From positions 248,001 to 312,000 of the forward strand of contig WACJ01000331.1 of assembly GCA_008973525.1 (NCBI GenBank): DNA of 64,000 nt, in the 5' to 3' direction. The notes under the pieces were generated by a model that was not told where the DNA came from, searched no databases, and was given only the letters and a program-made list of their open reading frames with translations. Of this stretch, positions 1-60,510 are shown piece by piece. This DNA comes from Stenopsyche tienmushanensis (Eukaryota; Arthropoda; Insecta; Trichoptera; Stenopsychidae). Numbering within the stretch: the first letter of the stretch is position 1; every line of letters starts with the position of its first letter. The translations under genes and the position numbers were made by a program.

Positions 1-5
1 CGATC

Positions 6-2103
6 ATGTCCATTCCCTCGAACATTAGAGACCCTGTCACTGGGAGTTTTTCCACGAACATTGTGGATTCGACAAAAATCCTACTGGACACTTTGCTTCC
101 TCAAGATGACCCTGATCGCGATTCTCCGGCCCATAGATTTATTAGAGCTGCTGCCGGAATAAACTTCTCGGTTCCGGACGCCCCGTTGCCCGGCGATGAC
201 GAGATCTCTGAGGTCTTCTCTTCGCTGAGGGTGAGGAAGGCCCCTGGTCCCGATCGTGTGGATGGTCGGATGGCGCGCTGCATCTATTCGGGTGCGAGCG
301 GGCTGTTTGGCAGTCTATATCGGGAGTGTTTCCGTCGCGGCATTTTTCCCGCTTGCTGGAAATTGGGACTGGCCGTCATTATTCCCAAACCAAAGGCTGG
401 CAGGCCTCCCAGTGACCCTAAATCTTTCAGACTAATTGTTCTGCTGCCGATCCTTGGGAAGGTGTTGGAGAGGCTCATTTCAAAAAGATTGCGGGAGGTG
501 GTTGAAATCAAGTCTCCGTTTTCGAATACTCAATTTGGCTTTCGGCCGGGTCGGTCCACTGCTGATGCGATCCTCCACCTCATTAGTGTGGTCGACAGTC
601 ACCCCGGAGAGTATGTCTGCGTTGTGTTTTTTGACTTTGTTGGTGCATTTGACAATGCCTGGTGGGACGCCATTAGGTTGAAGCTGGGCCTCAAAGGAGT
701 TCCGGCCAACCTGGTGGCCATCATCGGGAGCTATCTATCTAACAGATTTGTTGTCGCCGAGGCGGGCTCATCCGTTCTGCTGCATGAACTGACAAGGGGC
801 TGCCCGCAGGGTTCGGTCCTTGGACCGACTCTGTGGAACGTCCTGCTTGACGACATTTTTGACCTCGACTTGCCTGTGGGCTGTTCCCTCACGGCATATG
901 CGGATGACCTTGCGCTGATTGTCCGGGGTGCCTCTCGAGGATCGGGCCACGGACGCGGTTTCCGCTTTGTCGGAGTGGTGCGTGCTTAATAAGCTCGCGT
1001 TCGCTCCGGCGAAGACGTGCGCGATTCAGCTTTCGGGCCATTCAAGATGTCCGCCTCGCATCTATCTGGGAGGCTCTCCCATTACTTTTAAAACTTCCGT
1101 GTCCTATCTGGGGGTAACCCTGGGCGAGAGGTGCAGGTTTTCCATCCATTACAGGACTGCGCTGGAGAGAGCTAACGCTGCCTTCGCTAAAATGACAAGG
1201 ATCTCCGGGTCTGATTGGGGCATTGGTGGTGGTAACATGAAAATTCTTTACAACGCAATATTTTTAGGAATTTTCTGCTATGCGGCGGGTGTTTGGGCGA
1301 ATCGCCTCAATAACCCTGGCAGATCGGGCCTGCGTGGCCACGTGGACAGACCTGGTCCTCGTGGGATGGACCTCACCACCTCCAAGGCCATCTGTGCTGG
1401 TCAAAGGAGGGCTTTGATCAGCTTGACGAAGGCTTATAGGACTGTCTCAACCGCGGCACTGCCGGTTTTGGCCGGCGTGCTGCCACTGGATTTGCAGCTG
1501 CAACTGAGCGCGGCTGCGTACTGTTTCAAGAATGGCTTGCCGATATTCTTAGGTGATAGGGCAGTTGAAACATCCCTTCTGGATGGTCTCGAACCCACTG
1601 TAGAAGCACACGTTAGAATTTTAAAAAGGAGGGTGCTTGATGCTTGCTTAGTAATTTGGAATGACAGATGGTCGAAAGAGATGAATGGGGAGCATTTGCG
1701 AAAGTTTTTCCCTAACGTTAAATGCCGCTTGTCGTGTCGCTGGGTCGTTCCGGGTTACTGGACGTCCCAGTTCCTCACGGGACACGGGTGGTTCAAGCAC
1801 TCACTCCTTCGGTTTGGTCTTGAATGTCTTTCGGATTGTCCATGTTTGCACGCGGACATGACCGCCGATCACGTGCTTTGGTCATGTCCAGGCATGGACA
1901 CCGATCGAGAGGTTCTTCTGCGATGTGTCAGGGGTTCCGCTTCAGGACCTGTTGGGCACAGAGACCTTGTGGCTGGTCCCAAAGCCTTTAAGGCTTTTAA
2001 CACTTTTTGCTTAAAATTTGGCACTTTGTGCGAGGTGGGCGGGTTCTACGGGCCGGTGAGTGAGATGCCGGTTGGTGGTGCTCGTCCCGCCTCTTTGATT
2101 TAA
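6..2103 (+). pseudogene. R1-like non-LTR retrotransposon ORF2, copy 1 (RT to C-terminus)
   Basis: Reverse transcriptase part of an ORF2 that copies element RNA at a nicked target. The window edge cuts off the endonuclease. The frame from position 6 carries the fingers motif SPFSNTQFGFRPGRST, the catalytic block FFDFVGAFDNAWW (about residues 206-220), GCPQGSVLGP and the active site YADDLAL (about residue 297). Near 925 the reading moves to the +1 frame (open from 919) and continues through SEWCVLNKLAFAPAKTC and the thumb to a C-terminal CCHC-type motif CPCLHADMTADHVLWSC (C-x-C-x8-H-x4-C), as in R1/I-type ORF2 proteins. It ends in a stop at 2101-2103. Alignment to copy 2 suggests a small deletion at the shift. 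All catalytic Asp residues remain, so the frameshift is the main visible lesion. GC content is clearly above the flanks. Confidence 0.9.
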
Positions 2104-2231
2104 ATTCTACTGACTACCTTTCTATTGCAATTCATGATTTATTACTGATACCCTGTTCTGTGCGGTCGATCCATTGATATATTTTCAGATTCTATGACTA
2201 TTTTTATACTGTGTTATGTGTTCTATTTCTG

Positions 2232-2237
2232 AATAAA
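2232..2237 (+). terminator. AATAAA polyadenylation signal of copy 1
   Basis: AATAAA lies about 130 bp after the copy 1 ORF2 stop, in an otherwise featureless 3' UTR (2104-2270). The position fits the element's own 3' end. No poly(A) tail is visible after it. Confidence 0.4.
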
Positions 2238-2270
2238 ATATTCTTATGTGTTGACTATTTCTTGACAACC

Positions 2271-2297
2271 CCCACTGGTAAATTAGATGCCAGTGGG
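2271..2297. repeat. 8-bp perfect hairpin
   Basis: CCCACTGG pairs with CCAGTGGG across an 11-nt loop. It sits just after the copy 1 polyadenylation signal and could mark the 3' UTR end or a recognition structure. No matching hairpin was seen after copies 2 or 3. Confidence 0.45.
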
Positions 2298-2418
2298 TGG
2301 AGCTGCTTAATATTATTGTTTTTTTTTGTAATATTTATTTATTATTGACTGAGTTTGTGATCGGCTCGCGCGAACAGGGGTCTTTGACTGATATATATGA
2401 ACTGGCAGCTGGCTAGAC

Positions 2419-2772
2419 TGATAAAAATAATTGACCCCAGATATAATTTCCGACTCCGCCAGCGTCAGCAACGAGTGCCCCTTCCCCCCCAAACCCTGCA
2501 AATTTTGCACAGCCACGGGTGGAGCAGAGGAATGTCTCTCGCACCGTACCCCTATATAAGTAATTTTTTCAACGCTTTTTGCGTTCTTTGTTTAGTTGCG
2601 TGCGTCCGCTTTGACCGGTGTTCTTTAATCTGGTCTTGGCGTGGGCGTGAGGAGAGTGGTGGGTTTCCCCTCAAACGGTGTCCCTATCTACTTAAATTGG
2701 ACTTAGCAGATTCTTCGATTTAAATTGTAAATTCAGTCAAATTGAGTGGCCCCCGTCGCCGTCGACGGTCGT
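2419..2772 (+). repeat. Shared junction module, copy 1/copy 2
   Basis: This sequence lies between the 3' end of R1-like copy 1 and the 5' UTR of copy 2. It aligns, with divergence, to 6989-7400 and 11372-11560. Shared landmarks are GATAAAAATAATTGACCCC, a CAGCGTCAGCAACGAGTG block, ACGCTTTTTGCGTTCTTT, and GGTGTCCCTATCTAC followed by GGCCCCCGTCGCCG. Each occurrence has an R1-like copy on both sides, so it is either the 5' UTR/promoter of the downstream element, the 3' UTR of the upstream one, or a preferred target. Confidence 0.7.
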
Positions 2773-3222
2773 CCGCCGCTAGGGCTGCGCCCCGTGGCGC
2801 CCCCCTTCCCCCCCCCGGCCTCCGCCCCCCCCCCCCCAACCCCCCTCCACCCCTAATAAGTTTTTTTTTGTGTTTTTGAAAAAATTTTTTTTTCGAATCC
2901 CCCCCCCCAAAAATTTTTTGTTACCCCTCATCCTAGAATCGAATAAGGATCTTTTTGCGAGCACGGCACACCTGCTCCCGATTTTTCACGGACGCTGGTT
3001 GCCGAGTTATCGAGGTTTTAGCTTTAAGTATAATTAGTATTAAGGTTAATTTAAGTTACAGCATAAGTTTTAGCGTTAGTTTTTTTTTGTTTTTTTTTTA
3101 TTTTTTTTTATTAGTTACTTTTATATTCGTTAATTATTCTAATTCACTCTTCTTTTCTTGTATGTACTTAGCATAAGTTAGATTAAGTACTAATATAATC
3201 AGGCACTGTTTTAGCTGTCAAG
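2773..3222 (+). promoter_or_regulatory. 5' UTR of R1-like copy 2
   Basis: Non-coding stretch from the junction module to the ORF1 start. It has the C-rich tract, then A/T homopolymers and a long T-rich segment (about 3080-3180) just before the ORF. No TATA box is evident, in keeping with internal promoters of non-LTR elements. The ORF1 ATG has the context GTCAAGATGGTG, a reasonable Kozak match. Confidence 0.45.
2793..2855. repeat. C-rich tract (G-quadruplex-prone on - strand)
   Basis: Consecutive runs of C up to 14 long, broken by short spacers, sit in the 5' UTR of R1-like copy 2. The minus strand has many G runs of three or more, enough for G-quadruplex formation. A second short C run lies near 2900 between T/A homopolymers. 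Such tracts are also assembly-error prone. Confidence 0.6.
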
Positions 3223-4824
3223 ATGGTGCGCCACTCCCCCAGGAAGGTGGGTAGGGTGAGACACTCTCCGCCCGCGTCGCGAGCGTCTACGTCCTCGACG
3301 ACGTCGGCCCCCTTGGAGGTCTCGGATCCTCCTCAACACTCCTCTGACCTTCTATCGGGTTCTCGGTCACCGCGTTCCCAGATTGTCCCGCCTCCTCTGA
3401 CCCTCCCTACTCCTGAGGGTGCGCCAAAGAGGGCGCTTCAGCGTTCTCCCCCGGACCGCGCTGATGATGTCGATCCTGGAGGGGTGTCCCCGCCGGAGAA
3501 GAGACATCGCTGTAGGGATCCTGCTGGTGTGTCTGGCGATCCCGCTCAGGCCTCGGCCGCGACAAGTTGCGCCCCAACTGATCCTCACTCCCCGTCGGCT
3601 GCGACCCCTCCGTCATCGGGCATCTTGACGCACGATTACCCCCGAGTTGACTTCGAGGCCCGCAGTAAGGGCTTCAAAGACAAGATTGCTTTCCTGTCGG
3701 GAATCTTCCAGGACACCAGAAGCAGGATGTCTGGTGATACGAGAGCTGAGGGTCTCAGTGCCGTCGACTCCGTCAAGGAGTCGATCTTCGATGTACTACT
3801 GGCATGTTCTTTACAGGAAACGGCCCTGGAGAAGCTGAGGGCCGAGTACATGAAGAAACTGCTGGAACTGAACCTGGCCCAGTCTGCACTGCCCCCTGTA
3901 TCCCAGCCTACGGATGAACCGTCGTCGTGGTCCAGCGTTGCTGCTCGCGTCCCTCTCAGGTCGGGTGTCACTCGGGTTGCTCCTGAGTTCCCCCCATTGA
4001 GAAATAATAGGAGGATTCCGGTGGTAGGCGATGGTGGGGCGTGGTTCACGCCTTCTCCCAGACCCACATTAATTGTCAGGCCCAAGGACACGACTGCTGA
4101 CAAATCTTATGGCGCAGTTATTTCAGCAATGAAGGCCAATGTGGATCCACTTAAGGACGGTCTCTGCGTCAAGCGCACTGTTGCGGCCCGCAATGGGGGT
4201 GTCATCCTCATCCCGGACTCCCAGAAGGGCGCTGAGAGGTGGCTGAACTGCGAGAAGCTTGCTTCTGCAGGACTCACGGTCACCTCATTGTCTGCTTCCT
4301 CCGACCCTAAGGTTCTGATCTCCGGCATTCCGGCGGATCTGTCGGAAGCCGAGATCATGGAGGGCATCTACGGGTCGATTTCAGCTAGGTTCCCGGGCGA
4401 GATCGGCGATCTGCAGGAGCTGACTCGGTCGTGTGTGACTCGCTCTTTGAGAGTTCCGCTGGGGCGTTCCAACGCCACCATGATCCTTTCTGTCCCGTCA
4501 AAAATTAGGCACATGCTGATTTCGTCGCCGAGGGTCTACCTGGGCTGGGTGTCCTGCCCGGTGGTCGACCACCTGCCGTGCACCAAATGTTTCAGATGTC
4601 AGCAATACGGGCACTACGTTGCTGCGTGCCCGGAGAAGGAGCCTACCTGCTCGTGCTGCGCTAAGGTGGGGCACGAGCACAAGGAGTGCACTGACAAGAG
4701 CGCGCAGATTTGCGCTACATGCAGGCGGATGGGTCAGCCCGACAGCCATCGCACGGGAGCTCAGGAGTGCCCTGCTTACGCTGCTAGCGTGAGAAGACTC
4801 CTGAGCAGGACGAACTACCGGTAG
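3223..4824 (+). CDS. R1-like retrotransposon ORF1 (Gag-like, CCHC zinc knuckles)
   Basis: Uninterrupted 533-residue ORF1, the best-preserved gene in the window. It would coat element RNA. Residues 1 to about 125 are Ser/Pro/Arg-rich and probably disordered. Residues about 145-230 are helical with a possible coiled coil (ETALEKLRAEYMKKLLELN), and about 290-440 form a folded core. Three zinc knuckles close the protein (about residues 455-514): CFRCQQYGHYVAAC, CSCCAKVGHEHKEC and a longer CATCRRMG...H...C. This triple arrangement is usual for ORF1 of R1/I-like elements. The first ATG has a good Kozak context after a 5' UTR. The stop is followed within about 40 bp by the ORF2 endonuclease reading. 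Intactness here contrasts with the broken ORF2. Confidence 0.9.
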   Translation: MVRHSPRKVGRVRHSPPASRASTSSTTSAPLEVSDPPQHSSDLLSGSRSPRSQIVPPPLTLPTPEGAPKRALQRSPPDRADDVDPGGVSPPEKRHRCRDPAGVSGDPAQASAATSCAPTDPHSPSAATPPSSGILTHDYPRVDFEARSKGFKDKIAFLSGIFQDTRSRMSGDTRAEGLSAVDSVKESIFDVLLACSLQETALEKLRAEYMKKLLELNLAQSALPPVSQPTDEPSSWSSVAARVPLRSGVTRVAPEFPPLRNNRRIPVVGDGGAWFTPSPRPTLIVRPKDTTADKSYGAVISAMKANVDPLKDGLCVKRTVAARNGGVILIPDSQKGAERWLNCEKLASAGLTVTSLSASSDPKVLISGIPADLSEAEIMEGIYGSISARFPGEIGDLQELTRSCVTRSLRVPLGRSNATMILSVPSKIRHMLISSPRVYLGWVSCPVVDHLPCTKCFRCQQYGHYVAACPEKEPTCSCCAKVGHEHKECTDKSAQICATCRRMGQPDSHRTGAQECPAYAASVRRLLSRTNYR

Positions 4825-4844
4825 AAGCGGGCGCTCGGGGAGCG

Positions 4845-6920
4845 CCTAGAGTCATCAGATGCGCCCAGATCAACCTGGCCAGGTCGAGGGTTGCCACCTC
4901 CGAATTGCGGATGGTGGCGTGTGAATTTTCTCTTGATATAGTTATGGTACAGGAACCCTTCATTATCAATGGCTGCATTCCGGGGCTGGGTGAGTCGGTG
5001 TTCGTGGCGCTCTCGGGTCCCGCGGCTATGTCGGCGGTGGTGATCTTTACTAACAGATTTAATTGCATGCTTTTGACGAATGTATCCAGCGACTTCCATG
5101 TCCTTGCCAGGCGCCTTTCTCACCGTATCGTATCGATGGCCGGATGGCCCGTGAGATTTATAATAAGTCACCGGTACTTTCGGCTGTCTTTATCGGGAGT
5201 GTTTCCGCCGCGGCATTTTTCCCCATTGTTGGAAGATTGGCCTTGCGGTCGTTCTCCCGAAACCCAAGGCCGATAGGCCTCCCAGTGACCCTAAATCGTT
5301 CCGACTTATAGTTCTTCTCCCCGTTTTTGGGAAAGTTTTAGAGAAACTCATCGCCGCGAGGCTAGGGGTGATTTTGGAGCGCGCTTCTCCACTGTCTAGG
5401 GCGCAATTCGGTTTTCGACCGGGGCGCTCGACCACCATGGCGGTGGAGTATCTGCTGAATACGGCGGAAGCTTCGCCGAATAGGTATTGTTGTATTGTAT
5501 TTTTAGATTTTGTTGGCGCCTTCGACAATGCCTGGTGGGCGGCGGTCATTTTGAAGCTGGGGCTCAAGGGCGTACCAGCCAATCTGATAGCCCTCATCAG
5601 GAGTTATTTGTTGGGGCGCTCTGTCCTTGCTGAAGCTGGCACCAATGTAATTCTTCATCATTTATCCAGGGGATGTCCGCAGGGGTCGGTCCTCGGACCG
5701 TCTCTGTGGAATGTCCTCCTGGACGATATCTTTTGTTTAGATCTGCCTCCAAGATGTTCGCTATCTGCTTATGCTGACGACCTGTCCCTCATGGTGATGG
5801 GCGATACCAGGTTGGAGATTGAATCCAGGTCAAATGCGGCGGTAGCGTTGCTGTCGGAGTGGGGCGCGCTAAATAAGCTCGTCTTTGCTCCGGCAAAGAC
5901 CTGCGCGCTGCAACTTAAAGGTCATGGCAAGAGGGCACCGTGGATCTACCAAGGTGATAACCTTATTCGTTTTAAATCTACTGTCTCCTATCTTGGTGTC
6001 GCCCTCTCCGAGCGGATTAGGTTCACGGAGCACATTGCCTGTGCTCTCGAAAAAGCCAACACTGCCTTCGGAAGAATCGTCAGGATTTCTGGCTCCGAAT
6101 GGGGTGTTGGTGGTAGGAACCTGAAGGTCATGTATCATTCTATTTTTGTTTCCATTTTTTTTTATGCCTCCGGTGCCTGGGCTCATAGACTGGATTACAC
6201 AATTGCCTCGGTCACCGGGGGTTAAATTTGACACATCAGCGTGCTATCTATGCCGGACAGAGGAGGGCGCTGATCATCGTGACTAAAGCATATAGGACCG
6301 TCTCGACTGCTGCGCTGCCCGTTCTGGCTGGCCTTCTGCCGCTAGACCTGCAGCTGCAGTTGAGTGCGGCACCTCATCTTTTTCTAAACAATTTGCAAAT
6401 ATACGTTGGCAGTGGTACTTTTGAAACACCCCGTCTGGGTGATCCCGAACCCAATGTAGAGTCACTCGTTAGTAACTTAAAAAAGAGAGTCCTGATTGCT
6501 TGCCATAATGTATGGAATAATAGATGGTTGGCCTCCGAAGATGGAGGTCAGCTCAAAAAATTTTTTAGTTCAATTAAATACCGTTTGTCATGTCGCTGGG
6601 TGGTTCCATGCCATTGGACCTCCCAGTTCCTCACAGGACATGGACGGTTCAGGGCTCATCTTTCGCGTTTTGGTATTGCACGACTTTCGGTGTGCCCATG
6701 CATGCACGCGGACATGACAGCAGATCATGTGCTTTGGTCATGTCTGGGCATGGACCCCGATCGAGACTTCCTCCTGCGCTGTGTACGGGGTCCGTTCATC
6801 GGGCCTTTGGGACACGCAAACCTTGTGGCTGACCCAGGTTGCTTTGCAGCCTTTAAAAAGTTTTGTTTAAGTTTTGGCACAAAGTGCGAGCCGGGTGGTT
6901 ACTATGGCACGTGGTCATAG
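4845..6920 (+). pseudogene. R1-like non-LTR retrotransposon ORF2, copy 2
   Basis: ORF2 following ORF1, in several frames. About 4857-5110 reads as the start of the APE-type endonuclease (QINLARSR..., IVMVQEPFI, GCIPGLGES). It then jumps at about 5120 straight into the RT domain (YRIDGRMAREIYNKS), so most of the endonuclease is deleted. Further shifts occur at about 5190-5330. From 5368 the RT is open: AQFGFRPGRST, FLDFVGAFDNAWW, GCPQGSVLGPS, YADDLSL. Another break at about 6225 moves to the frame open from 6228, which carries the C-terminal motif CPCMHADMTADHVLWSC and ends at 6920. The element cannot make a full enzyme even though its ORF1 is intact. It is closest to copy 1 in this window. 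Confidence 0.88.
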
Positions 6921-6988
6921 GACACCCCGGCATTTTCATTGTAAATGTAAATATAGATTCAATTGGTTGGACATCTTGCTGGCGCCTG

Positions 6989-7400
6989 GATTTAATAATA
7001 GACACCGTAGCTCCGGCTAAATTTTTCGTATCCACCAGTACCGGCAGCGAGTGTCCATACCCATAATCCCTGCAATTTCTGCAGCAGCCAAGGTGAGTGG
7101 GAGGAGTTGTTCTCACACCCATCCCGTGTTCATTATGTTCTACGCATTTTGCGTACTTTTGATTTGCAAGCGTGCGTCTGCGACGGCCAGTTCGTAACTG
7201 GCTCAGTGCGGGCGCGGTGGTATCAGTGGTGGGTCCTTAAGGGTGTCCCTATCTACCTCATTCCGTTGTTGGCGGCCGTGGCGATCGGATCGGTTTTTGC
7301 GAGCTCCGCCGAAAGCTGTGGTCATTGCGACAATTGTGTGTTTTTTGCGTGACTAATCAGTCAACAGTGCCATTACGGCCCCCGCGGCAAATTGCGCGGC
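6989..7400 (+). repeat. Shared junction module, copy 2/copy 3
   Basis: Follows copy 2 by 68 bp. Positions 6989-7167 are almost identical to 11372-11555 (landmarks: GACACCGTAGCTCCGGCTAA, CACCAGTACCGGCAGCGAG, ACGCATTTTGCGTACTTTTG). Positions 7168-7400 are alignable, with more divergence, to 2610-2772, including GGTGTCCCTATCTAC and the CAGTCAA...GGCCCCCG end. An ORF1 remnant lies downstream at 8991. Confidence 0.72.
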
Positions 7401-8300
7401 GCCGATTAGTGATTTTTTAATCGAAAAAAGACGATTTGATTGATAGTATTGTTGCAATCAATTAATTTTTATATTTAATTTCGTGATCGTTTGGTGAATT
7501 TCCCAACGGCGACACCGCTGGGGGAAGCGCGAGGCGCTCCCTTGCACCACTGTGAAAACTCAGACTCGATTGACAATATTTTAAGTGATAAAATAACAAT
7601 TTTGTGTAAAATAATAAATTTCTATTTTTAATTAAATTGTGAATTTTTCCGGATCGTCCCCATTTTTTGTGGGACTGTGCGCTCCAACATCAGGAGTGCG
7701 CCCCCGCGAAAACGCGGCGGAAAAAACGCACCGCTTAAGAGTTATCCAAGGATTATCGATCTATTTTAAAATTTTAATTAATAATTATTTTAATTTTTTG
7801 TGTCGGATCACCCCCAATATCTCAAGTAGGGATGCGGGGAGGTCCTGTAATATAACCGTGTGAAAACAGAACGGAAAACATTCCATTTTCAGTGATAAAA
7901 CGAACACCAAGCATTTCATTGATAAACTGTATTAATTTTATATTTTTAATTTTAAAAATAAAATAGTGTGTAGATTCATCACACGGGAGTTTGTCCCGTG
8001 TGATGAATCAAAATAGTCTTAGTTTCTGCCCCTAATCATAACCCAACGAAAACCCGAACGAAAATAGACATTTTTAAGTGATAAACTGTAAAACAAAATA
8101 TTCATTCATAAAGTTTAATAAATTTCTATTAAATAATTATTGTATAAAGTTTGCCCGTTCAAGGTGAAAATAGGCCATAACGAGAGTCGACTCTCCATAA
8201 TCACACCGACAAATAAAAATCCGGGAAAAGAACAACTTTTCATTGATAAACAACCGATAGTAAGAAATTATTGTTACAACGTCACGCTGTGGGAGGAGCC
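7380..8300 (+). repeat. GATAAA/hairpin tandem units
   Basis: AT-rich DNA with recurrent motifs of the form (A/C)A(G/T)TGATAAA at about 7584, 7891, 7919, 8077 and 8241. Several share neighbours such as TTTAATAAATTTCTATT and GAACGAAAA/GAACGGAAAA. Between them lie short GC-rich fold-backs: around 7385-7412, 7510-7545 (GCGC arms), 7676-7706 (GCGCTCC / GGAGTGCGC), 7973-8009 and the palindrome GAGAGTCGACTCTC near 8173-8190. It looks like five diverged units of about 100-300 bp, perhaps the repetitive 5' UTR of R1-like copy 3. No coding capacity is seen. Confidence 0.5.
7973..8009. repeat. 16-bp perfect hairpin
   Basis: GATTCATCACACGGGA (7973-7988) pairs perfectly with 7994-8009 across the 5-nt loop GTTTG. 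It lies in the AT-rich 5' region of R1-like copy 3. It is too perfect to be chance and has no partner elsewhere in the window that I could see. Confidence 0.85.
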
Positions 8301-8990
8301 ATAGCGCGATCGTTTACTACTAACGAGCTCTTCAATGAATTTATGGACAATTAGCATTACTACGATGCCGTCGCCGTACAGGCAACTGGAATAAAAACAG
8401 ACATCGACTACAATTAAATATTATAATTAAATACTATAATTAAACTTTTGAATAAAACTCTTGTATTAAATTATACACACTCCGCCGTCGCTCTGCGACC
8501 GGTCAGCGCCTAAACTCATCAAGCCCGAGACGCCCTCCCCGTCAATTCTGACCGGGATACGTTTGGTGCGATCGGGCCGAATACCACGATCAAGCCTGCG
8601 GTTTACTTTCCCATCCTGGTTAAATAAACATTGATTAGTTTTTAGTGTGCTGGTTTTCTATTGTTATCCTCTATGTATTTTCTATGTATTTTTCTCATGT
8701 TGGTCATATAACGCTACTACAAAGCGGACACTGTTTAACTTTAATTGTTTTAGTAATAAATGTATCAGGTGTGAATAAACACTGTTAGTTTTAAGCCTTT
8801 CTGCTCCTGTAATAAAGCTCATTGCACGTCCTTGTTTGGGCAGTGCACACATTGCACTAATGTGCCCATTTGACGGCCATTTCCACTGTTAAATATTGTA
8901 CGCTTATTCATTTTGTTTTCCAACATTTCTGCCCTGCACTAACGCTTAATTACAGCCACTTTCATCAAAGATGATGGGCCATTCGCCTAA
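8301..8990. other. Stretch without a recognisable gene
   Basis: Falls where the 5' part of ORF1 of R1-like copy 3 would be expected. I could not align it to ORF1 of copy 2. No ORF of note. A short GTAGCGGA-type tandem repeat occurs at 8990-9025, at the edge of the recognisable ORF1. Confidence 0.4.
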
Positions 8991-9497
8991 GTAGCGGAAG
9001 TAGCGGTAGCCAAAGTAGCGGAAGACATCGTAATCAAAGAAATCCACGAAGCAGTACTGACCGAACTAACTACTCTCGAAAAATTCAAAGAATCGTCCAC
9101 CGTCCGGTCCTTTCGTTTCCGAGAGGGCGGGGACCGAGGAACCCTTATCATCAGCGTACTACCCGCTATTCGAAATGCGCTCATCAAACGCACCAACATC
9201 TACATTGACTGGGTGCAGTGCCGAGTCCGGGACTTTATCCCGGACTCTCGGTGCTACAGGTGTAACCAATACGGGCACATCAGAGCCACCTGCAAGGCTG
9301 CGGAACCAACCTGCGGGCACTGCGCCTCGGCTGGCCACGAACAAAAGGATTGCCCCAACGCCAAATCCCCTAAAGCATGCGCCACGTGCAAGTCAATCGG
9401 AAAGCTGCACAACCACGGCACTGGCACCTGGGACTGTCCGGCGTATCAGGCCAACACGAGGAGAGGACTTGAGCGTATCAACTACGGAGCTCAATAA
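8991..9497 (+). pseudogene. R1-like ORF1, copy 3 (C-terminal part)
   Basis: Open frame after an in-frame stop at 8988-8990. It encodes the end of an ORF1 protein: a folded segment (ALIKRTNIYIDWVQC) and the three zinc knuckles CYRCNQYGHIRATC, CGHCASAGHEQKDC and CATCKSIGKLHNHG...C, ending ...DCPAYQANTRRGLERINY. It matches copy 2 ORF1 in order and spacing, but the N-terminal two thirds are missing or unrecognisable. The stop at 9495-9497 overlaps the already open ORF2 frame. Confidence 0.85.
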
Positions 9498-11379
9498 CGA
9501 ACACTCCCCCCACAAGGCGAACAAGTACCACAAAAGCGGCGGACCAAAGGGGCGACGCTCTCAATTGAAAACACTTAAGATAGGACAGCTAAATGTAGGA
9601 AGGTCCAGAGCAGCCACTACAATGCTGCATCAGATCGCTGCTGAAGAAAAGCTTGACATAATCATAATTCAAGAGCCCTTCTGCCTTTATGGCACCATTC
9701 CGGGGCTAGGTGGAAGGACGAAGATAGTCTTCACTGGCGAGAAACCTGGTGCCGCAGTGGCAATATTCAATGCCGAGATTGACTGTCTGAACCTCAGTCA
9801 CCTGTCCACGGAAAACAGAGCCTGCGCGGAGATTAGATGGTCAAACATGTCCATTATTATCTTCTCGTGCTACTTCAAATTCAATGAAGATCACGAGCAA
9901 CACATACTAGGACTGGACCAATCCATATCTGCTCTGGGTCTAAATGCTGTTTCAAAAACGAAATTGATCATCGGTGCGGACACCAATGCTAGATCGGCGA
10001 TGTGGGGGCCACCGGATCAGGCAAGTGCTGGAAATGTCAGCAGAAACATAGCCGTCGAACAATGGATCGCTGCGCAGGAGGACCTGTTCGTAATGAACGA
10101 CCCGGATAGCGAACCTACCTTCAATACTGTGAACGGCTCCAGCCACATCGACGTCACTCTGGCAAACCGGAGGACTGCGCACCTAATTTCAGACTGGAAG
10201 GTCTCAAAGGAACTCTCCAGCAGCGATCACGCTTTAATCACCTTCCGCCTGTCCCACTCCCCAACCGACGCGACCCCCCCGACATACTCCATACTCAAGA
10301 GATTCAGTTCCAGGCGTTATATACACCGGTTGGATGAGCCGCTTGCCGCTGCAATGCAGGATCAGGATTTTGTCAGCACCTGTCTGAAACGCGGACCTGA
10401 CACAGCGGCTCAGCTCCTAAATGACAAAATAATTGAAGCAGCCGAGTCCGGACTAGGTAGGGTAACAGGGAAATATCAAAACAGACCGCCCTGGTGGAAC
10501 GCAAAACTCGGCATACTACGGACGGCAGTTAACAAAGCCCGCAGACTATACAGGAAAGCCATCTTAACTCACCCTGACGGTCCTACTTGCCCCATTGTAC
10601 TGGGGAAAAAAACTACCTGGAGACAACGAGGCGAGGTTTAAACGCGAGGTCGGGCGCGCAAAGAAAGACAGCTGGAGAGAATACGTGGAAGGACAGGCGG
10701 AGGTGGGACCTTGGGGACCTGCCTACAGAGCGGTGTCGGGCGGCCCCATCAAGGTGCTGTCCGACGTAAGAAACCCTACCACGGGACGAGTCGTAACGAG
10801 CGCGGAAGACTCAATAAAAATACTGATAGACACTCTTCTTCCAGGCGACTCTGTCGAAAATGATCTCCCAGAACATGCAGAAACTCGCATACTGGCCAAG
10901 GAAATGACATCAAATCAAGACAAAGCAGCACCTCCAACCATGGATGAAATTGAAACCATAATACGCAACTTAAAATCCAGCAAATCTCCTGGGCCAGACC
11001 GGATCGACTCCAACATCATAAAAAGGGCATTCGGGAAAATTGATATTGACTTGCTATTCATATACAGGCAATGTCTAGACAAAGGTATCTTCCCCAAGTG
11101 TTGGAAGGAAGGGCTGGCAGTCATCCTCCCAAAAGCGAAATCCAACAAGGAAACAGTAGACCCGAAGGCTTACAGGATCATTATCTTGCTTCCGATCCTT
11201 GTGAAGATCTTCGAGAAAATAATCGCGAACAGATTAAACACAATTTGGTGTCCGGTCCCCGCGCCTTCAGCGCCTTCAACTCCTTCTGTAGGAGTTTTGG
11301 CGCCAAATGCGAATTTGGTAAGTTCTATGGGCTTCACCCAGAGGACAAGCTTACAAGCCCGTTGGCCCGTTGGATTTAA
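9480..11379 (+). pseudogene. R1-like non-LTR retrotransposon ORF2, copy 3
   Basis: The frame to 10641 gives a complete APE-type endonuclease: LKIGQLNVGRSR, DIIIIQEPF, IIGADTNARSAMWG, SSHIDVTLANRR and the SSDHALI active-site block. No ATG is available between the ORF1 stop and the endonuclease, so initiation would need overlap, readthrough or a non-AUG start. A shift at about 10600 leads to the frame with the RT N-terminal region (SPGPDRIDSNIIKRAFG, KCWKEGLAVILPKAKS, AYRIIILLPILVKIFEK). At about 11242 an internal deletion removes the rest of the RT and joins the extreme C-terminus (GPRAFSAFNSFCRSFGAKCE), which ends at 11379. Palm and active site are absent. Confidence 0.88.
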
Positions 11380-11560
11380 AAATAGACACCGTAGCTCCGG
11401 CTAAAATTTTTCGTATCCACCAGTACCGGCAGCGAGTGTCCATACCCATAATCCCTGCAATTTCTGCAGCAGCCAAGGTGAGTGGGAGGAGCTGTTCTCA
11501 CATCCATCCCGTGTTCATTATGTTCTACGCATTTTGCGTACTTTTGATTTGCAAGCGTCT
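11372..11560 (+). repeat. Shared junction module, copy 3/copy 4
   Basis: Begins inside the last codons of copy 3 ORF2 (GGATTTAAAAATAGACACCG) and stays nearly identical to 6989-7167, then diverges abruptly after GATTTGCAAGCGT. The sharp edge is compatible with a recombination or insertion boundary. Confidence 0.75.
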
Positions 11561-12480
11561 TCGCCTGCTTGCTGCTCCACTCTCGTTCGTCCTACAGTCC
11601 TGTGGTTTTCTCCATTGCGTCTGCAAGGTTCTCGCCGTTAGTCTGAGGCCCCGGTCAAGTTGATCGGAGCATCGACTGTCTGGTTTTTTGTATTTTTATG
11701 CCCGTGGTCCGCGGCCCGTCTTGTCGGCGGTATTCCGGGACTCCGGGTGAAGATTTCATCCAGCTTTTTTGTGCACGGACACCGCTTAGTTTTTAAGTAC
11801 GTTTTGGTTTTTGTCCCGACTCGATCGGTATTGGTAGTTTTACGAAATATAATACAATGCTATTATTTTATAGTAAGTAAATAAAATATCTATGGGAGAA
11901 AACCCGTATTTTTAAATAAGCAATGTTATTATAGCTGGAAAGTACAACATTGCATAGAACAGAGAAATAGGTCGGAAATACCGTGAAAACTTCTTACCTT
12001 GGCAAGCTTCTGCGACATGCAGAGCTTGTGAAGGGCTATCATGAGTGGAAATTGCAGCAAGCTGGTTACTGACCGGATCCGAGAAAAGGTATTGCGGGCA
12101 CCATTGCACACAACGGCAGTAGTCAAGTTCTAAAATAAAAATGCATGGAGCACGAATCAAAGCATGGAGCGAACCAAATCGTACATACCCCTAATCCAAG
12201 TGCTGTTTAATAGTCATTTGTTGTCGTTGCAAAATACCAGGACGACAGTTAAAAATGTGAGGCCCAAGAAAGTCACAACAATCAATACCAGTTATGTGAC
12301 GGCTCACGAGAGTCCGAGGATGCGACTAGCGGCTCTACAAGCGACGCTGTCCAATATGGGCAGCAGACGAATTTGCAAGACCTAAGTCCGCTTAAAAAAA
12401 CGGTGCACCAAATATCCAACTGATCCAACTGGTTCAACTCTATTTCCTACCACAGAATAACAGAGGCTTAATCTACATCG
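11561..12480. other. Stretch without a recognisable gene
   Basis: Sequence after the third junction module. An AATAAA lies near 11877-11885. GC content falls towards 12 kb. By analogy with copy 2, this should be 5' UTR and N-terminal ORF1 of copy 4, but decay is too advanced to assign. Short ORFs here (for example 12164-12385 +) match nothing I know. Confidence 0.35.
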
Positions 12481-12499
12481 CCGGCGGCATGCACTTGGA

Positions 12500-13560
12500 A
12501 AAACTCTAGGTCGAGAAAGCGACAGCTAACAGCGATGACGAATTCAGCTCTGGATAAAACAACGAACGAGATCAACAAGAAGGTGACAGTGGGAATTCTC
12601 GCCATCATCTTCGAGTCAGATACCAAAATGTCTGGCACCTAGGAACGCATTACAGGCGCCTTATATAAGTTCATACAAACTACGGTAAGAACCATCATAA
12701 ATGAAACCGATATGGCAGCTTTGGAGACAAAAGAGCTCGTTCATATCGACAAAATATAACGTCTCGAAAAGGCAATAAAAAGGAGCCTTGTCGGCGTCCA
12801 CTCTAACCACGGCATGCGAAAGCAAGACCCAGATTTCCTGGAAAAGGAGAGGACACATTCGTAAGCCCTACAGCATGACATGGGCAGCCGAACATGGGCT
12901 CTCCAACGAATTCGGCCGGTAGTAGTCATTCGCTCAAGAGAGAACAAATTTGGATACAATCATAATATACAACAAGACTCTCGTCAATCCAAGGATGGAG
13001 GACGTAAGCATCGCTGACCGCGAATCAGCCCAAACTACTGCTATGGGACACCCCAGCAGGTATGACAAGTTTCAAAGTGTTGCAGTTCAAGCATACCACC
13101 ATCAAAGAGAATAAACTCTCCTTTTCTACTCTCAAAAAAGTAACCATTTGCAGGAAAAAAGCAAACTCATCTAGAGCATGTTCCCGGCTACGTGAATTTT
13201 AATAAATAATAAATATCTCCGACTCTCGTTGCTATAGATGCCACGTGTTGCAAGTGCCAGCGAGCAACTTATCTAAATAAAGCGTAACCATGCAACCACT
13301 GCAGCTAGTCAGAATACACGATATTAGCACGATAAAGCACGATAAAAGGAATAACCTGAAATTAGCAAAGCATACTAACAGATCGCATGATTACCCAGCC
13401 TATAGGGCGAACCTCAAAATTATCATATTCCAAATGGATATCCAAATCGGGAAGCGAGAATTCCATTCGGTGGAAATACTTCATAGCATATCTTTAACGT
13501 ATATAAAAACTCCATTGCAATCCCGAATCAAGGTTATCCATAATTACCTATGGATTGGGT
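12500..13560 (+). pseudogene. Degenerate R1-like ORF1/ORF2 start, copy 4
   Basis: A heavily mutated relic. About 12550-12760 reads, with stops, as VGILAIIFESDTKMSG...ERITGALYKFIQ, matching the ORF1 helical region of copy 2 (KIAFLSGIFQDTRSRMSGD). Near 13218-13245 PDSRCYRC recalls the first zinc knuckle of copy 3, and 13388-13420 (HDYPAYRANLK) the ORF1 C-terminus. The continuation LKIIIFQMDIQIGKREFHSV resembles the LKIGQLNVGRS start of the ORF2 endonuclease. Order and spacing match copy 3, so this is a fourth element in the same orientation. Confidence 0.55.
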
Positions 13561-13579
13561 CTATCAACGGAACAATATA

Positions 13580-14700
13580 ACTCGCGAGAAAAATATTAGA
13601 AGAACTCCAAAAAAATGAAACATATAAACAATGTCTACATAACGACTTAATCACGTCTTTACAGTTTTAAGTTAGTTTTATCTACACTCGGTCAAACGTA
13701 AAAAAGTGGGAAAGAGATTGGTAATAGATACTAGCATATATACACGTAGATAAATGAATAATTTCCTCTACAGAAAGGTAGATAAAACACTTTTTCAGCA
13801 GCTGAGCAGCAGAAAAAAAGTGATGCAATTAAAGGAAGAAAGATAAACAAGTACGACCAAGACAAGATAAAAATAAATAAATTGAGTAATTATAAGGAAC
13901 AAGTTAAAATTAAGTCTGGCACCCTCATTCGCATAAAATAAGGCATACTGCACAAATTTCTCGATCAGGTTTTCTATGGTTCACCTAATCAACTATAAGT
14001 AATCGACGAGAAGCAAAGAGTTTATAGCTACATGTATAGATGAGATAACAATTAATACACATAGCAGAACATCTCCCAAAAGGTTTCAAAATAAAAGTGG
14101 AAATAGTAAATTCACGCAAAAATAAGTAAAGTCTCTAAACAAAACGCTTAACTTTCTAACTCAAACCCACTGGATGAGGAAGCCTGATAATTGCACCTTT
14201 GGGTAGGGTAGACATAGGGTAGCACTCGGGGTGATCGAGCTCAACGCTGACAACATGGTCTACAGCATGATGGAAAGCAAGAAAAAATGGGACCTTTGGC
14301 GCGACTATGTAGAAGACATCATGAGCGCCAAAGAAGACAGTGAAAGAGAGAGGCGCAGAGCGCCTCTTCAACAATAGAATAGGGCCATTAAATGGCTAGA
14401 CTACCTGTCACCCTTGAAGCAATGTGTAAAACAATACCAGGGGGACAGAGGAGACCAAAGGGAGCGATTTAGTGGGCAGGTGCGGCTGGTGGGTTTCCCT
14501 TATGGAAACTCATACAGACGTAAATCCCACACTCCCCGGATGATGGCAACATTATCCGGAAGTCTTGCGAAGATTTTCGCTCCCACAGGAAAAAAAAAAG
14601 ACATAAGAATAAGCCGGACTCTAAATAACCATCACAAAGTCAAAGATGACAGAAGCCCTCGCGGGCTAGTTAATCGCTAAATTCAAAAGCTCAGCAAAAC
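13580..14700 (+). other. Probable remainder of copy 4; unassigned ORFs
   Basis: Two short open stretches, about 14240-14376 (SKKKWDLWRDYVEDIMSAKE) and 14414-14680 (88 residues, basic), stand out in slightly GC-richer DNA. The first loosely recalls the KKDSWREYVEGQ segment upstream of the RT in copy 3, which would fit the position in copy 4, but the match is too weak to assign. Elsewhere I see nothing. Confidence 0.3.
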
Positions 14701-17676: not shown

Positions 17677-20258
17677 TTAACCTGTTAAATGCCAACGACG
17701 TGCCGGTGCGTTAGACGTGTTTGTGCCCCGTACGCCAACGACGCGCCCGTGCGCAACTACGTTTCATCACAGAAAAACACATATTTTTAACACTTAAATT
17801 TTACTATGCTAAGAACACATATTGATGAATCCAAAAATGCTTTCACATTTTTAAAAAACTCGGTATTTCCCTTTCATTTTTAAATGAATTTAACAGAGGT
17901 CATCAGGGCTGCCTACTGAATGATCTGAATGAACGGGAGAGTGTCGTCACTTAAATTTGCCTTATCTGTTTATATGACTGATAATACCACAATACCGGGG
18001 AATACCATTTATCTCCTAAAACATCAATCCTTCGTAAATTGTCTTCTGACAGGAATCGTTTTATACTTGTCTTGTTGCGATTTTTTATATAAAATTCTCA
18101 TTTTTTTCCCGTGATTTATAAAAATTATCATTTTTAAGTTTGTGCTGAAACTTTTTCATGATTTTGTCTTGAGACTATTTCGTGATTTTGTGCTGTGAAT
18201 TGTTTCTTGATAATATTTTTTTGTCGTGTAAAATATTATTCCATAAAAATGGAATTCAAAGCTTTTTCTGATGAAGGTGAATACTCTGATAATGAAAGTT
18301 TTAGTGAATTACCTTTTGGGGAGGATATATTTTCTTTAGATGGTGAGGATAATGTAACAATCTTTCAAGAACCCACAGGTGCAGGCGTTTTTATTTGGGA
18401 AGAGCGGGATTTTAGTCCTATAATCCATCCATTTGATGACACTTCGTCAGGTATTAAAATAAATATCAGTGATGAAAATGAAAGCGAATTGGGTTTTTTT
18501 AAAATATTTTGTGGACGACGAAATGTTAAACATAATAGTTACAGAGACTAACCGTCAATATCATTATGTGACTTCCAAATTACCATTTTTGAGTACTCCC
18601 CTAAAATCGTGGATTGATTCCAATAAGGATGAAATATATGTTTTTTGGGTCTGTGTTTGTTATTCCCATTAAATTCAAGAAATTCAATAGACCATTACTG
18701 GTCAACTGATCCATTATTATATTCACCAATATATTCAGAAACTATGCCTCGAAATAGATTTCAATTATTACTTCGCATATTACATTGTTACAACAATGAA
18801 GAACATGTTTAGTTTAGTTTTAGAAGTTTGCATAAAATAAATCCCATTTTAAACATTTAAAAAAAAAAAATCCAAGTGCATATTATCTTTATAGGAAAAT
18901 TTGCATCGACGAAAGTCTATTATTATTTAAAGGACGCCTGATTTTTAAACAATATATACCGTCAAAAGTCAGTCGTTTTGGTATAAAATTATGTGTTAGA
19001 TATAATCATACATACAGGATCAACCACAGAATTTACTGATAATTCTGATATGGGAGTTGGAGCTAAAGTCGTAATGTCTCTCATTACCCCATATTTAGGC
19101 GCTGGTCATACATTATATTTTGATAACTGGTTTGCGACCCCAAAACTATTCCAGAAATTGCAAGAAAGCAAAACCAATGCAGTCGGAATTATGAAGAGAA
19201 ATCGTCTCGAAATGCCAGCATTCAAAAAAAAAATGAAGAAAGGGGATTCGTGTTCATTTCATATAAAAACTATTATGGCTCTAGCATGGAAAGACAAAAG
19301 GGACGTTACCATGTTGTCGACAATTCACACTCCTGAATTTGTAGAAACTGGAAAAACAAATTACAAAACCGGCGAGCCCGTACTAAAACCTACTGTAGCT
19401 ATTGATAATAGTAAAAATATGGGAAGTGTAGATAGGAGCGACATGATGATAAGCTCCATAAAAAGCATCAGAAAAAACATGAGATGGTATAAGAAGCTCC
19501 TAATGCATATAATGTTCAATGCAAATGCACTGTATATGCTGAAAACCGGAAAGCAGATGTCATTACCTAAATTTTCTTATTCAGTGATAGGTCAATTATT
19601 TGAAAAACATAAAATACTGATAGCTGCGAAAATAATATCCACGAGTCTACCATCACGGTTAGGAGTCAATACTCATTTTATTGGTACTAAACCCTTTTCG
19701 ATTGGAACAAAACCTGGAACTTCATCAACGTATTTGAGAAAAAGAATTGTTTTTATTGTTTGTTCTTCTTCAAAAAAAAGAACGGATAAAAAATATGTAT
19801 GTATACAGTGTAATGTGCCACTGTGTAAAGAACCATGTTTTAAAATTTATCACACACAATTGAATTTTTAAAACAATATAAATAAAGTGTATTGGTTCAA
19901 AAAATATTTTTCAAATGATCTAAAAATATATCAAAAATAATAATATTTGTTTATATAAATTGAGACAACCCTAAATAAACAATTAATTTGAATGGCGTGT
20001 ATATAATATTAGCAGAAAATTAAATAAAAAAATATAATCATTATGAGTTGTGGCAACCCTAATCAAGAATCACTCAAAAGCCGTAAATGATCCCGTAGGA
20101 TGGCATGTGGTATACATATATATGCTAGGACACATAAGTCACCTTTTGGCAATAAAATATGCAAGTCAAACTCATTTTTATGCAATTTCTAATATCTCTA
20201 AATTCGCTGGCGTGGAGCGCACGGCTCGCTCATTACGCTATGGCAGTTAAAAGGTTAA
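17677..20258 (+). mobile_element. piggyBac-like element with TTAA target duplications
   Basis: TTAA at 17677-17680 and 20255-20258 flank a 2574-bp element (17681-20254), close to the usual piggyBac size. The termini are CCTGTTAAATGCC on the left and, read inward, CCTTTTAACTGCC on the right. The inverse copy of the host repeat at 63389-63392 has a single TTAA and no insert at the matching position, so the insertion is directly visible. Subterminal DNA is relatively GC-rich (CGACGTGCCGGTGCG). Confidence 0.9.
18249..19871 (+). pseudogene. piggyBac-like transposase
   Basis: Cut-and-paste transposase of the DDE_Tnp_1_7 type. The start ATG at 18249 opens an acidic N-terminus (EFKAFSDEGEYSDNESFSEL), as is usual in the family. 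The frame breaks near 18500-18660 and is degraded to about 18960. CIDESLLLFKGR (about 18900) carries the first catalytic Asp. From 18993 the frame is open for 292 residues: HTLYFDNWFATP with the second Asp and MGSVDRSDMM with the third. It ends in a cysteine-rich finger, FIVCSSSKKRTDKKYVCIQC and VPLCKEPCFKIYH. All three catalytic acids survive in separate frames, so decay looks recent relative to the other elements here. Confidence 0.9.
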
Positions 20259-22842: not shown

Positions 22843-23950
22843 TTAATATGGGTCATATTTTTTTCGTATTACCTCTTGAATCCGAATTTTGAGGCAATTC
22901 AAGAATTCCTGACAAATTGTTATGTTATTTAGTATTTTATAAATGGTAGTTATTTCGAGTATGCTACGGCGGTCACACAGTTTAGCCATGCTTAAAAAGT
23001 TAAGTCTCTGATGATAAGTACTTCTACTACTGATACCACTAGACATGAAGGCCAGGCTACGCGTAAAGGATTTGTTAATTCTTTCTATGCACTCGGAATG
23101 CGCAGCGTAACATGGGTTCCAAATCACACATGCATACTCCAACATACTTCTAACCAATGCGTTAAAAATAATGATTTTGGATTCGGTCTTCCTAAACTAC
23201 TTTGTGTTGCGTTTAATAAAGTTCACCAATCTAGCAGATCTGTCGACAATGTTATTGACGTGTGCAGTGAATTTCAGTTTTTTGTTGAACAGAACTCCCA
23301 GGTCTCTCACCTCAGAAGACTCATTGATCGGCACTCCGTTGATATTAAAACAAAATTTAATAGGATTTATTTTTCTTGTAAATGATATAGATTGACATTT
23401 GGTTACATTTAGTACCATTTTATTAGTTAAACACCATGAATGAACGTGATCGATGTCGTCTTGGAGGAGGAGAGCATCGGCAGGGCACTTGACTTCTTTG
23501 AAGATTTTTATATCATCGGCGAAGAGAGAACAGTCGCTGTTTGTAATACATTCGACAATATCGTTAATGAACAAAGTGAATAAGATTGGTCCCAGCCTGG
23601 GACTCCCAGGTGTGATCCCTGAGGAGCTCCGGACGTTGAAAAATATTCGTAAGACGCGTATCCTCCAACCCCCACTGACTGAGGCCTTTGACTTAGATAA
23701 GAAGCGAACCATTTGAGAAGTGAACCATAATTTTATATGCGGCCCGCAGGATCATTTGGGTTGGCCACCCCTGGTTTAAAACATCCTCGGCGGGGCCCTT
23801 TTTGTATATTGGCATTATCTCTGCCTTCTTCCATATTTTAACTATATTCATATTCCATTTTTTTAACCTATTTGTTTCAGCTATGTCTATTTTTCCAGTT
23901 TGCTCCCAGTCTGACCAATTAAATATTGTTTGATTATGCCCGGTAGGCAC
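22843..23950 (-). pseudogene. Non-LTR reverse transcriptase pseudogene (CR1/Jockey-like)
   Basis: Minus-strand ORF2 relic in at least three frames. The 5'-most part (23800-23950) reads IVKIWKKAEIMPIYKKGPAEDV, the RT block before the palm. Then comes SSGITPGSPRLGPILFTLFIND (from the PQG box, mutated) and the catalytic SLFADDIKIF, the WCLTNKMVLNVTKCQSISF block and VRDLGVLFNKKLKF (23197-23712). The C-terminal segment is MVRSMLEYACVIWNPC...RINKSFTRSL (22843-23157). FADD is intact. A hAT-A terminal fragment at 23727-23773 sits inside the reading. The element differs from the R1-like copies and from the Jockey at 36-38 kb. Confidence 0.8.
23727..23773 (-). mobile_element. hAT-A terminal fragment
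   Basis: On the minus strand it reads CAGGGGTGGCCAACCCAAAT...GCGGGCCGCATATAAAATTA, the left end of the hAT-A family seen complete at 53171. Compared with that copy about 30 bp between two GCGGGCC repeats are missing, as expected for slippage or repair between direct repeats. It interrupts the RT pseudogene. Confidence 0.6.
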
Positions 23951-60199: not shown

Positions 60200-60510
60200 C
60201 CTTTCCCTATTGATGTTAGACTTTCCTAGGCTGACGTGTTCGTCAGGACCCCAAAGAGATGAACGGGCATTAGTATCTGCACCAATGATGATCCTTGTAC
60301 CGGCATTAGAAGAGAGGGAGATCATGGCTTGTTGTAGTCCCTGAAGATGAAGCTCCGGGTCGTCGCTATATTTGAAGTAGCATGAAAATAAATGTCCGCA
60401 GGGATCAGTTTTAGGCCCTATCTTGTGGAATGTCCTCATAGACGACATCTTCAATCTGAACTTGCCCACTGGATGCAAGCTTATCGGGTACGCAGACAAC
60501 CTCATCTCTT
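60200..60510. pseudogene. Head-to-head R1-like chimera (endonuclease / RT)
   Basis: The minus strand 60200-60396 encodes R1-like endonuclease (HLFSCYFKYSDDPELHLQ, GTRIIIGADTNARSSLWGP), closest to copy 3. Starting at the same place, the plus strand 60394-60505 encodes the RT block PQGSVLGPILWNVLIDDIFN and GYADNLIS. The two meet at AATGTCCGCAGGG. The RT active site is YADN, having lost the second Asp. Such a junction can come from 5' inversion during target-primed reverse transcription or from recombination between two copies. Confidence 0.75.

What the first reader, a model, noticed from the sequence alone, without database searches (positions are those of the whole stretch)
1..14700. Head-to-tail array of four R1-like retrotransposons with a shared junction module
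Four copies lie in the same orientation at a period of roughly 4-4.6 kb, with a common 190-400 bp module between consecutive copies (2419, 6989, 11372). Random insertion would not give this order. Known causes are sequence-specific targeting, telomere-directed insertion, as with TRAS/SART or the Drosophila HeT-A/TART arrays, or tandem duplication. The modules of junctions 2/3 and 3/4 are nearly identical over about 180 bp although the flanking copies are more diverged. GC content is well above the rest of the window.
Basis: partly seen in the sequence, partly recalled or inferred. Interest (0 to 1): 0.78.

Follow-up and report, generated by a model that had tools for sequence, protein, structure and literature searches.

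The report
Stacked R1 retrotransposons in 28S gene
This is a stack of R1 jumping genes that appear to have landed one after another in the same spot of a ribosomal RNA gene, a known kind of array, here long, built from several distinct R1 lineages, and more decayed the further a copy lies from the gene.

Summary
The head-to-tail R1-like copies are real, but the cause is the 28S rRNA gene, not the telomere. The window is part of a longer array (contig C331:211,281 to about 262,700). It starts at a 28S fragment that ends exactly at the R1 insertion site; elements follow, 7 of 11 junctions keeping the 14-bp 28S R1 target TGTCCCTATCTACT (window 2679-2692; 7244-7257 with one change). The "junction module" is 3' UTR of the upstream element. 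Three main lineages (A, A', B) are interleaved, and no neighbouring pair compared is mutually closest, so recent tandem duplication did not build the array. A second array (C345) has a changed target at its 28S end, and its spacers carry the same change: spacers are locally copied target-site duplications. ORF2 is open in the copies nearest the 28S; damage grows away from it. In the window, "copy 2" is an A/A' fusion, "copy 3" a deleted B joined to an A' 3' UTR, and "copy 4" a wreck known mainly by its 5' UTR. Tandem R1 arrays with 14-bp spacers are published for Drosophila (PMC2718515), so this is a new member of a known kind, notable for length, lineage mixing and order of decay.

The parts
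1..2678 (+).
   Evidence: RVT_1 7.9e-30; 86% identical over 5,190 bp to E2; one frame switch in ORF2
2679..2692 (+). 14-bp 28S R1 target-site duplication between E7 and E8 (TGTCCCTATCTACT, exact)
   Evidence: same 14-mer at 2703-2716 of an uninterrupted 28S sequence, L032
2693..5102 (+). E8a: 5' part of a lineage A element: 5' UTR, ORF1 3199-4824 with CCHC motifs, start of the endonuclease from 4788
   Evidence: ORFs; 80.8% to E2 over 3569-5102, 78% to E7 over 3219-5101; zf-CCHC_2 0.00061, below Pfam's cut-off
5127..7243 (+). E8b: 3' part of a lineage A' element fused to E8a: RT 5167-6225, C-terminal region 6189-6920, 3' UTR to 7243
   Evidence: 92.1% to F3 of C345 over 2,118 bp; RVT_1 1.1e-30
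7244..7257 (+). 28S target-site duplication between E8b and E9 (TGTCCCTATCTACC, one change at the last base)
7258..11350 (+). E9 (lineage B, copy 3): 5' UTR from 7258, ORF1 remnant 8991-9497, ORF2 9070-10641 and 10568-11241, about 1.4 kb deleted at 11241/11243, C-terminal end 11243-11350
   Evidence: 75% to E4 over 9010-11240 and 87% over 11245-11350; Exo_endo_phos_2 3.1e-15
11371..11558 (+). stretch of A' 3' UTR joined to E9; the end of this UTR and the 14-bp spacer are missing
   Evidence: 97.9% to 6987-7173, 96.8% to F3
11559..14700 (+).
   Evidence: 80.5% to E6 positions 52-305; 83.7% to F4; no ORF match

Best explanation
The region is an R1 retrotransposon array at the R1 site of a 28S rRNA gene copy. 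Each element entered by target-primed reverse transcription, cutting before TGTCC and duplicating 14 bp of 28S DNA. The duplicate left between the upstream 28S and the element's 5' end still carries the 28S flank that the R1 endonuclease needs, so later R1 elements of any lineage insert there again, one in front of the other. The array therefore grows at its 28S (left) end, the youngest copy lying next to the 28S and the oldest furthest away. Old inner copies decay by frameshifts and by deletions that fuse neighbours and remove spacers, which gives the chimeric copies in the window. Shown: 28S flank, 14-bp spacers, lineage mixing, locally matching spacers in a second array, order of decay. Inferred: the cutting steps (from the literature), endonuclease preference for the 28S side, direction of growth, deletion rather than template switching as origin of the fusions.
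For: 28S aligns to C331:211,160-211,294 and ends exactly at base 2716 of the L032 28S sequence, the last base of the 14-mer; the first element follows. On C331:188,001-332,000 all 8 matches to the 14-mer at up to 2 mismatches are on the + strand and at element boundaries (one 28S/E1, seven element/element); mean of 5 random sequences 0.4, both strands. C345: a 28S fragment whose junction reads TGTCCAATATGAGT is followed by elements with spacers TGTCCAATATGAGT (269,296; 275,034) and TGTCCAATATGCGG (280,935); no exact copy elsewhere in the fetched C331, C345 and C338 stretches. All 7 alignments of L032 to the fetched regions end at or before the R1 site; L032 reaches 385 bases beyond it. Lineages interleave: E1 B, E2 A, E3 B, E4 B, E5 A', E6 B, E7 A, E8 A/A', E9 B. 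ORF2 is open over 1,250, 1,119, 814 (5'-truncated), 1,232, 1,090 and 1,022 aa (3' end lost) in E1-E6; E7 has 1 frame switch, E8 2-3 plus a deletion, E9 deletions, 2 frame switches and 1 stop, E10 no match. Hand scores of ORF2 damage against position: rho 0.89, p 0.00018; with ORF1 and the 3' loss of E6 counted 0.96, p 0.00005; ORF2 only without E10 0.84, p 0.002. PMC2718515 section 13 (read) describes such arrays and this mechanism in Drosophila.
Against: Four of 11 junctions lack the spacer (E6/E7, E8a/E8b, E9/A' 3' UTR, A' 3' UTR/E10), explained only by assumed deletions. ORF1 is not clean in all 28S-side copies: E5 and F2 each show a frame switch there. The C345 trend (F1, F2 open ORF2; F3 one stop; F4 a wreck) is not significant alone (p 0.083). 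Damage scores were assigned by hand after seeing the data, and E10's value is nominal. No 28S downstream of the R1 site was found to the right of the array, so its right end is not anchored. C345 also holds a canonical-like 14-mer at 286,312 whose relation to F4 is unclear. Genome-wide counts of 28S sites could not be made (search tool busy). Assembly errors cannot be excluded without reads.
Confidence: 0.93

Rival explanations
1. Telomere-directed addition, as in HeT-A/TART or TRAS/SART.
For: One orientation and a decay gradient would fit addition at a chromosome end.
Against: Element 3' ends abut 28S 14-mers and the array starts in a 28S fragment; no telomere-type repeats in the 261.5 kb scanned; the array lies 71-123 kb from the contig's right end and more than 200 kb from its left end.
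Confidence: 0.02
2. Tandem duplication or unequal crossing-over of one R1 unit, as the title of Rae 1982 suggests for D. virilis (seen only as a reference entry) and as PMC2718515 proposes for the uniform D. melanogaster arrays.
For: Would give head-to-tail units with identical spacers.
Against: Adjacent copies share 48-70% protein identity on C331 and 86-87% on C345; the closest pairs F1/F3 (97%), E5/F2 (93%), E8/F3 (93%), E2/E7 (91%) are not neighbours (E9, E10 and F4 not in that table). E7 and E8a, both A, are not closer to each other (78%) than E8a is to E2 (81%).
Confidence: 0.04
3. Arrays formed by repeated insertion, but into the downstream duplicate, so that growth is on the right.
For: Spacer sequence alone does not fix the direction.
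Against: The most decayed copies are on the right in both arrays; upstream 28S is preserved, downstream 28S was not found.
Confidence: 0.06
4. The fused copies (E8; E9 with an A' 3' UTR) arose by template switching during reverse transcription rather than by later deletion.
For: Reverse transcriptases of this kind can switch templates (recalled); breakpoints lie within coding or UTR sequence.
Against: The fusions lie in the right part: 4 of 6 junctions from E6 on lack the spacer, against 0 of 5 from E1 to E6 (counting the fusions as junctions presupposes two elements). E8 misses about 7.4 kb relative to a whole A and a whole A' element (own arithmetic), as one deletion would give.
Confidence: 0.25

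Closest known systems
Tandem R1 arrays of Drosophila (ancestral-type R1, Stage and Eickbush 2009, PMC2718515)
   Same: R1 at the 28S site, copies separated by the 14-bp TSD, new insertions thought to enter the 5' TSD of a resident copy; mixed lineages noted for D. ananassae (R1A tandem copies all upstream of R1B) (section 13 read; other passages)
   Different: There at most an average of two to three elements per inserted unit; here 7 inter-element spacers in one contig and remnants of about 12 elements, three main lineages interleaved, visible decay order, and a second array with its own spacer sequence
R1 arrays of D. melanogaster
   Same: many consecutive R1 copies; R1 copies flanking the X rDNA largely fragmented (PMC12400953, one passage seen)
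   Different: there uniform rearranged junctions, thought to come from amplification of one event (PMC2718515); here different lineages with TSD spacers
TRAS/SART and HeT-A/TART (recalled, not compared by a call)
   Same: head-to-tail order; TRAS and SART belong to the R1 clade
   Different: no telomeric repeats in the scanned stretches, 28S spacers instead

Membership tests
R1 element | Inserted at the R1 site of 28S rDNA | tested here: met
   28S ends at the 14-mer, then the element (C331 and C345)
R1 element | 14-bp target-site duplication | tested here: met
   8 boundaries on C331 with 0-1 changes, 4 further junctions without it; array-specific version at 4 boundaries on C345
R1 element | Two ORFs: gag-like with CCHC motifs, and endonuclease plus RT | tested here: met
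   Pfam RVT_1 and Exo_endo_phos_2 above cut-off, CCHC below cut-off; two long open frames in E1, E4 and E5
R1 element | RT phylogeny within the R1 clade | tested here: inconclusive
   Relatives that a source names R1 are Eumeta proteins at 39-44% (120 of 222 hits listed); no tree with reference clades was built
Tandem R1 array (ancestral type) | Copies separated by the 14-bp TSD at the normal site | tested here: met
   7 of 11 junctions
TRAS/SART or HeT-A/TART telomeric arrays | Telomeric repeats or chromosome end at the junctions | tested here: not met
   no telomere-type repeats in 261.5 kb; junctions are 28S
Active R1 | Retrotransposition by the copies with open frames | not testable with these tools
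   open frames only

The most novel reading that the evidence does not exclude
R1 arrays are stratified records: each lineage in turn re-inserts into the duplicate next to the 28S gene, so position gives age, and each array copies its own target variant as a barcode. The C345 array shows that R1 accepts a target whose last nine bases differ, so specificity would rest on the 28S flank and the first five bases (TGTCC).
Probability: 0.55. Interest if true: 0.5.

Novelty: new member of a known kind. Interest (0 to 1): 0.36.

Why it matters
Assembled R1 arrays with several lineages let the insertion order be read from the sequence. They test the published re-insertion model directly, show how long R1 can persist in dead 28S copies, and offer natural target variants that bear on R1 endonuclease specificity.

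Tried and rejected
Considered and dropped: telomere model; module as host multicopy target or as a 188-bp target-site duplication; module as 5' UTR of the downstream element (dropped once the 28S 14-mer was found about 250 bp downstream of its start); module as a known structured RNA (Rfam, 0 matches in the window). A consensus fold of ten 3' UTRs was weak (-11.5, several broken pairs) and is not used. One search was a mis-chosen alignment and gave nothing. Plasmid collection: no match. A 28S pattern in viral contigs: 0 matches. Paper searches: none found, listings. Papers opened: PMC2718515 (section 13 and passages), PMC12400953 (two passages), PMC10257491 (passages), PMC2048585 (passages). 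Solved-structure search gave RT matches of several kinds (LINE-1, R2, retron, group II intron), no named R1 chain. The organism was not identified; named relatives of the RT are mostly insects.
Full report
What was claimed.

What is there. Protein comparisons place R1-like ORFs at 3-2103, 3199-6920 and 8991-11404, all on the + strand. The window is G000:C331:248,001-312,000 of a 451-Mb assembly. I fetched the rest of C331 from 178,001 to its end, C345:240,001-307,500 and C338:190,001-240,000. At E below 1e-6, tblastn shows R1-like matches on the + strand of C331 from 203,687 to 259,401 and none on the other strand in between. The copy at 203.7-208.1 kb lies left of the 28S fragment, and no spacer was found at it.

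The boundaries. The 14-bp R1 target in 28S was recalled, then verified: it is bases 2703-2716 of an uninterrupted eukaryotic 28S sequence, L032. On C331:188,001-332,000 it occurs at 211,281; 218,058; 223,242; 225,979; 234,139; 239,821; 250,679 and 255,244 (the last with one change), all on the + strand, against a mean of 0.4 in 5 random sequences. The first belongs to a 28S fragment that aligns at 89.6% to C331:211,160-211,294 and ends at base 2716; Rfam finds the same fragment. The others separate one R1 copy from the next. Window positions are 2679 and 7244.

The module. Ten genomic matches were found. Eight were fetched; in 7 of 8 an R1 ORF2 end lies just upstream, and in one (L005, C338) none was found. 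Two were not examined. One of the seven (L008, C524) is a decayed single copy without the 28S spacer within its 3.1 kb. The near identity of the modules at junctions 2/3 and 3/4 is identity of A' 3' UTRs; F3 on C345 has the same one, 99% to the first and 96.8% to the second.

Mixed lineages. Naming the elements E1 to E10 from the 28S side, the RT to C-terminal region gives lineage B (E1, E3, E4, E6), A (E2, E7) and A' (E5, E8, and F1-F3 of C345). B against A or A' is 47-52%, A against A' 64-66%, within B 64-76%. E9 and F4 had too few aligned residues (122 and 142; cut-off 200) and E10 none, so they are not in that table; E9 is B by its match to E4. Neighbours on C331 share 48-70%, on C345 86-87%. 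No neighbouring pair is mutually closest; only for E3 is the nearest relative a neighbour (E4, 70%), while E4 is nearer to E6 (76%). The pairs at 91-97% are not neighbours. This order is expected from independent insertions, not from duplication.

Local copying of the target. On C345 a 28S fragment (Rfam) keeps TGTCC of the target and continues as AATATGAGT, followed by a 5'-truncated A' copy. Whether those nine bases are a changed 28S or were left by an earlier insertion is open. The same 14-mer separates F1/F2 (269,296) and F2/F3 (275,034), and TGTCCAATATGCGG separates F3/F4 (280,935). Elsewhere in the fetched C331, C345 and C338 stretches the closest matches have two mismatches (C331:260,348 and C345:260,332) and are not at boundaries. 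So spacers are copies of the local target. C345 also holds a canonical-like site at 286,312 (one change), next to an A-type 3' end, whose relation to F4 is open, and another at 307,351 on the - strand at the end of a 28S piece.

Order of decay. ORF2 is open over 1,250, 1,119, 814 (5'-truncated), 1,232 and 1,090 aa in E1-E5 and over 1,022 aa in E6, whose 3' end is lost. E7 has one frame switch, E8 two or three (by reference) and a deletion, E9 deletions with two frame switches and a stop, E10 no recognisable ORF. On C345 ORF2 of F1 (5'-truncated) and F2 is open, F3 has one stop, F4 is a wreck. Against a perfect gradient, ORF1 of E5 and of F2 each show a frame switch. Hand scores of ORF2 damage give rho 0.89, p 0.00018 for C331 and p 0.083 for C345. 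Counting ORF1 and the 3' loss of E6 gives 0.96, p 0.00005; leaving out E10 gives 0.94, p 0.00033, or with ORF2 only 0.84, p 0.002; C345 stays at 0.083. All scores were set after seeing the data.

The window's copies. "Copy 2" is A up to 5102 and A' from 5127. "Copy 3" lacks about 1.4 kb, mostly RT, and ends in an A' 3' UTR beginning 20 bp after B similarity stops. That UTR stops at 11558, where a 5' UTR like that of E6 begins 51 bp inside its counterpart, so spacer and flanks are missing. The simplest account is deletion between neighbouring elements; template switching is not excluded. If the fusions are counted as junctions, spacers are present at 5 of 5 junctions from E1 to E6 and at 2 of 6 from E6 to E10 (E7/E8a, E8b/E9), and the array holds remnants of about 12 elements.

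Mechanism and precedent. Section 13 of PMC2718515 (read) reports tandem R1 arrays in seven Drosophila species, separated by the 14-bp TSD, and proposes insertion into the TSD at the 5' end of resident copies. The boundaries and the order found here fit that model. What I did not see in the searches made is an array of this length and lineage mixture with an order of decay and array-specific spacers; those searches cover only openly licensed papers, and most results were seen as listings.

Limits. 28S sites could not be surveyed genome-wide because the search tool stayed busy. No 28S was found at the right end of the array; L032 covers only 385 bases beyond the R1 site. Read support is unknown. 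The species is not identified.

Noticed in passing
window 18987-19871 (+): Transposase remnant of the DDE_Tnp_1_7 family (4.3e-31), piggyBac-like by recall
   Followed up: partly
window 23197-23751 (-), 36492-37987 (-): RT and endonuclease fragments of other LINEs; RT matches to the array elements mostly 21-30%
   Followed up: no
window 60206-60503: Two short R1-like pieces, EN on the - strand and RT on the + strand, abutting
   Followed up: no
window 34311-35925 and 50444-52644: Inverted pair about 96% identical, with internal repeats of about 600 bp
   Followed up: no
L009/L010 (C331:196,845-199,743): GC-rich 331-bp tandem repeat, 8.8 copies, possibly rDNA spacer; not tested
   Followed up: no
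C331:316,032-325,507 (-) and many other contigs: Further R1-clade copies, mostly about 40-57% identical to the array families; the C331 ones have no 28S 14-mer at up to 2 mismatches. The genome gave 115 scored RT matches (of 4,535 candidates), some families in many near-identical copies
   Followed up: partly
E6 (C331:239,883-240,139) and window 11559-11811: Share a 5' UTR that differs from the one of E1, E4 and E9 although E6 is also lineage B: possible 5' UTR exchange
   Followed up: partly
L016 and L030 (C331), L023 (C345): Further 28S fragments, one directly followed by a 5'-truncated lineage A copy, and an 18S fragment
   Followed up: partly
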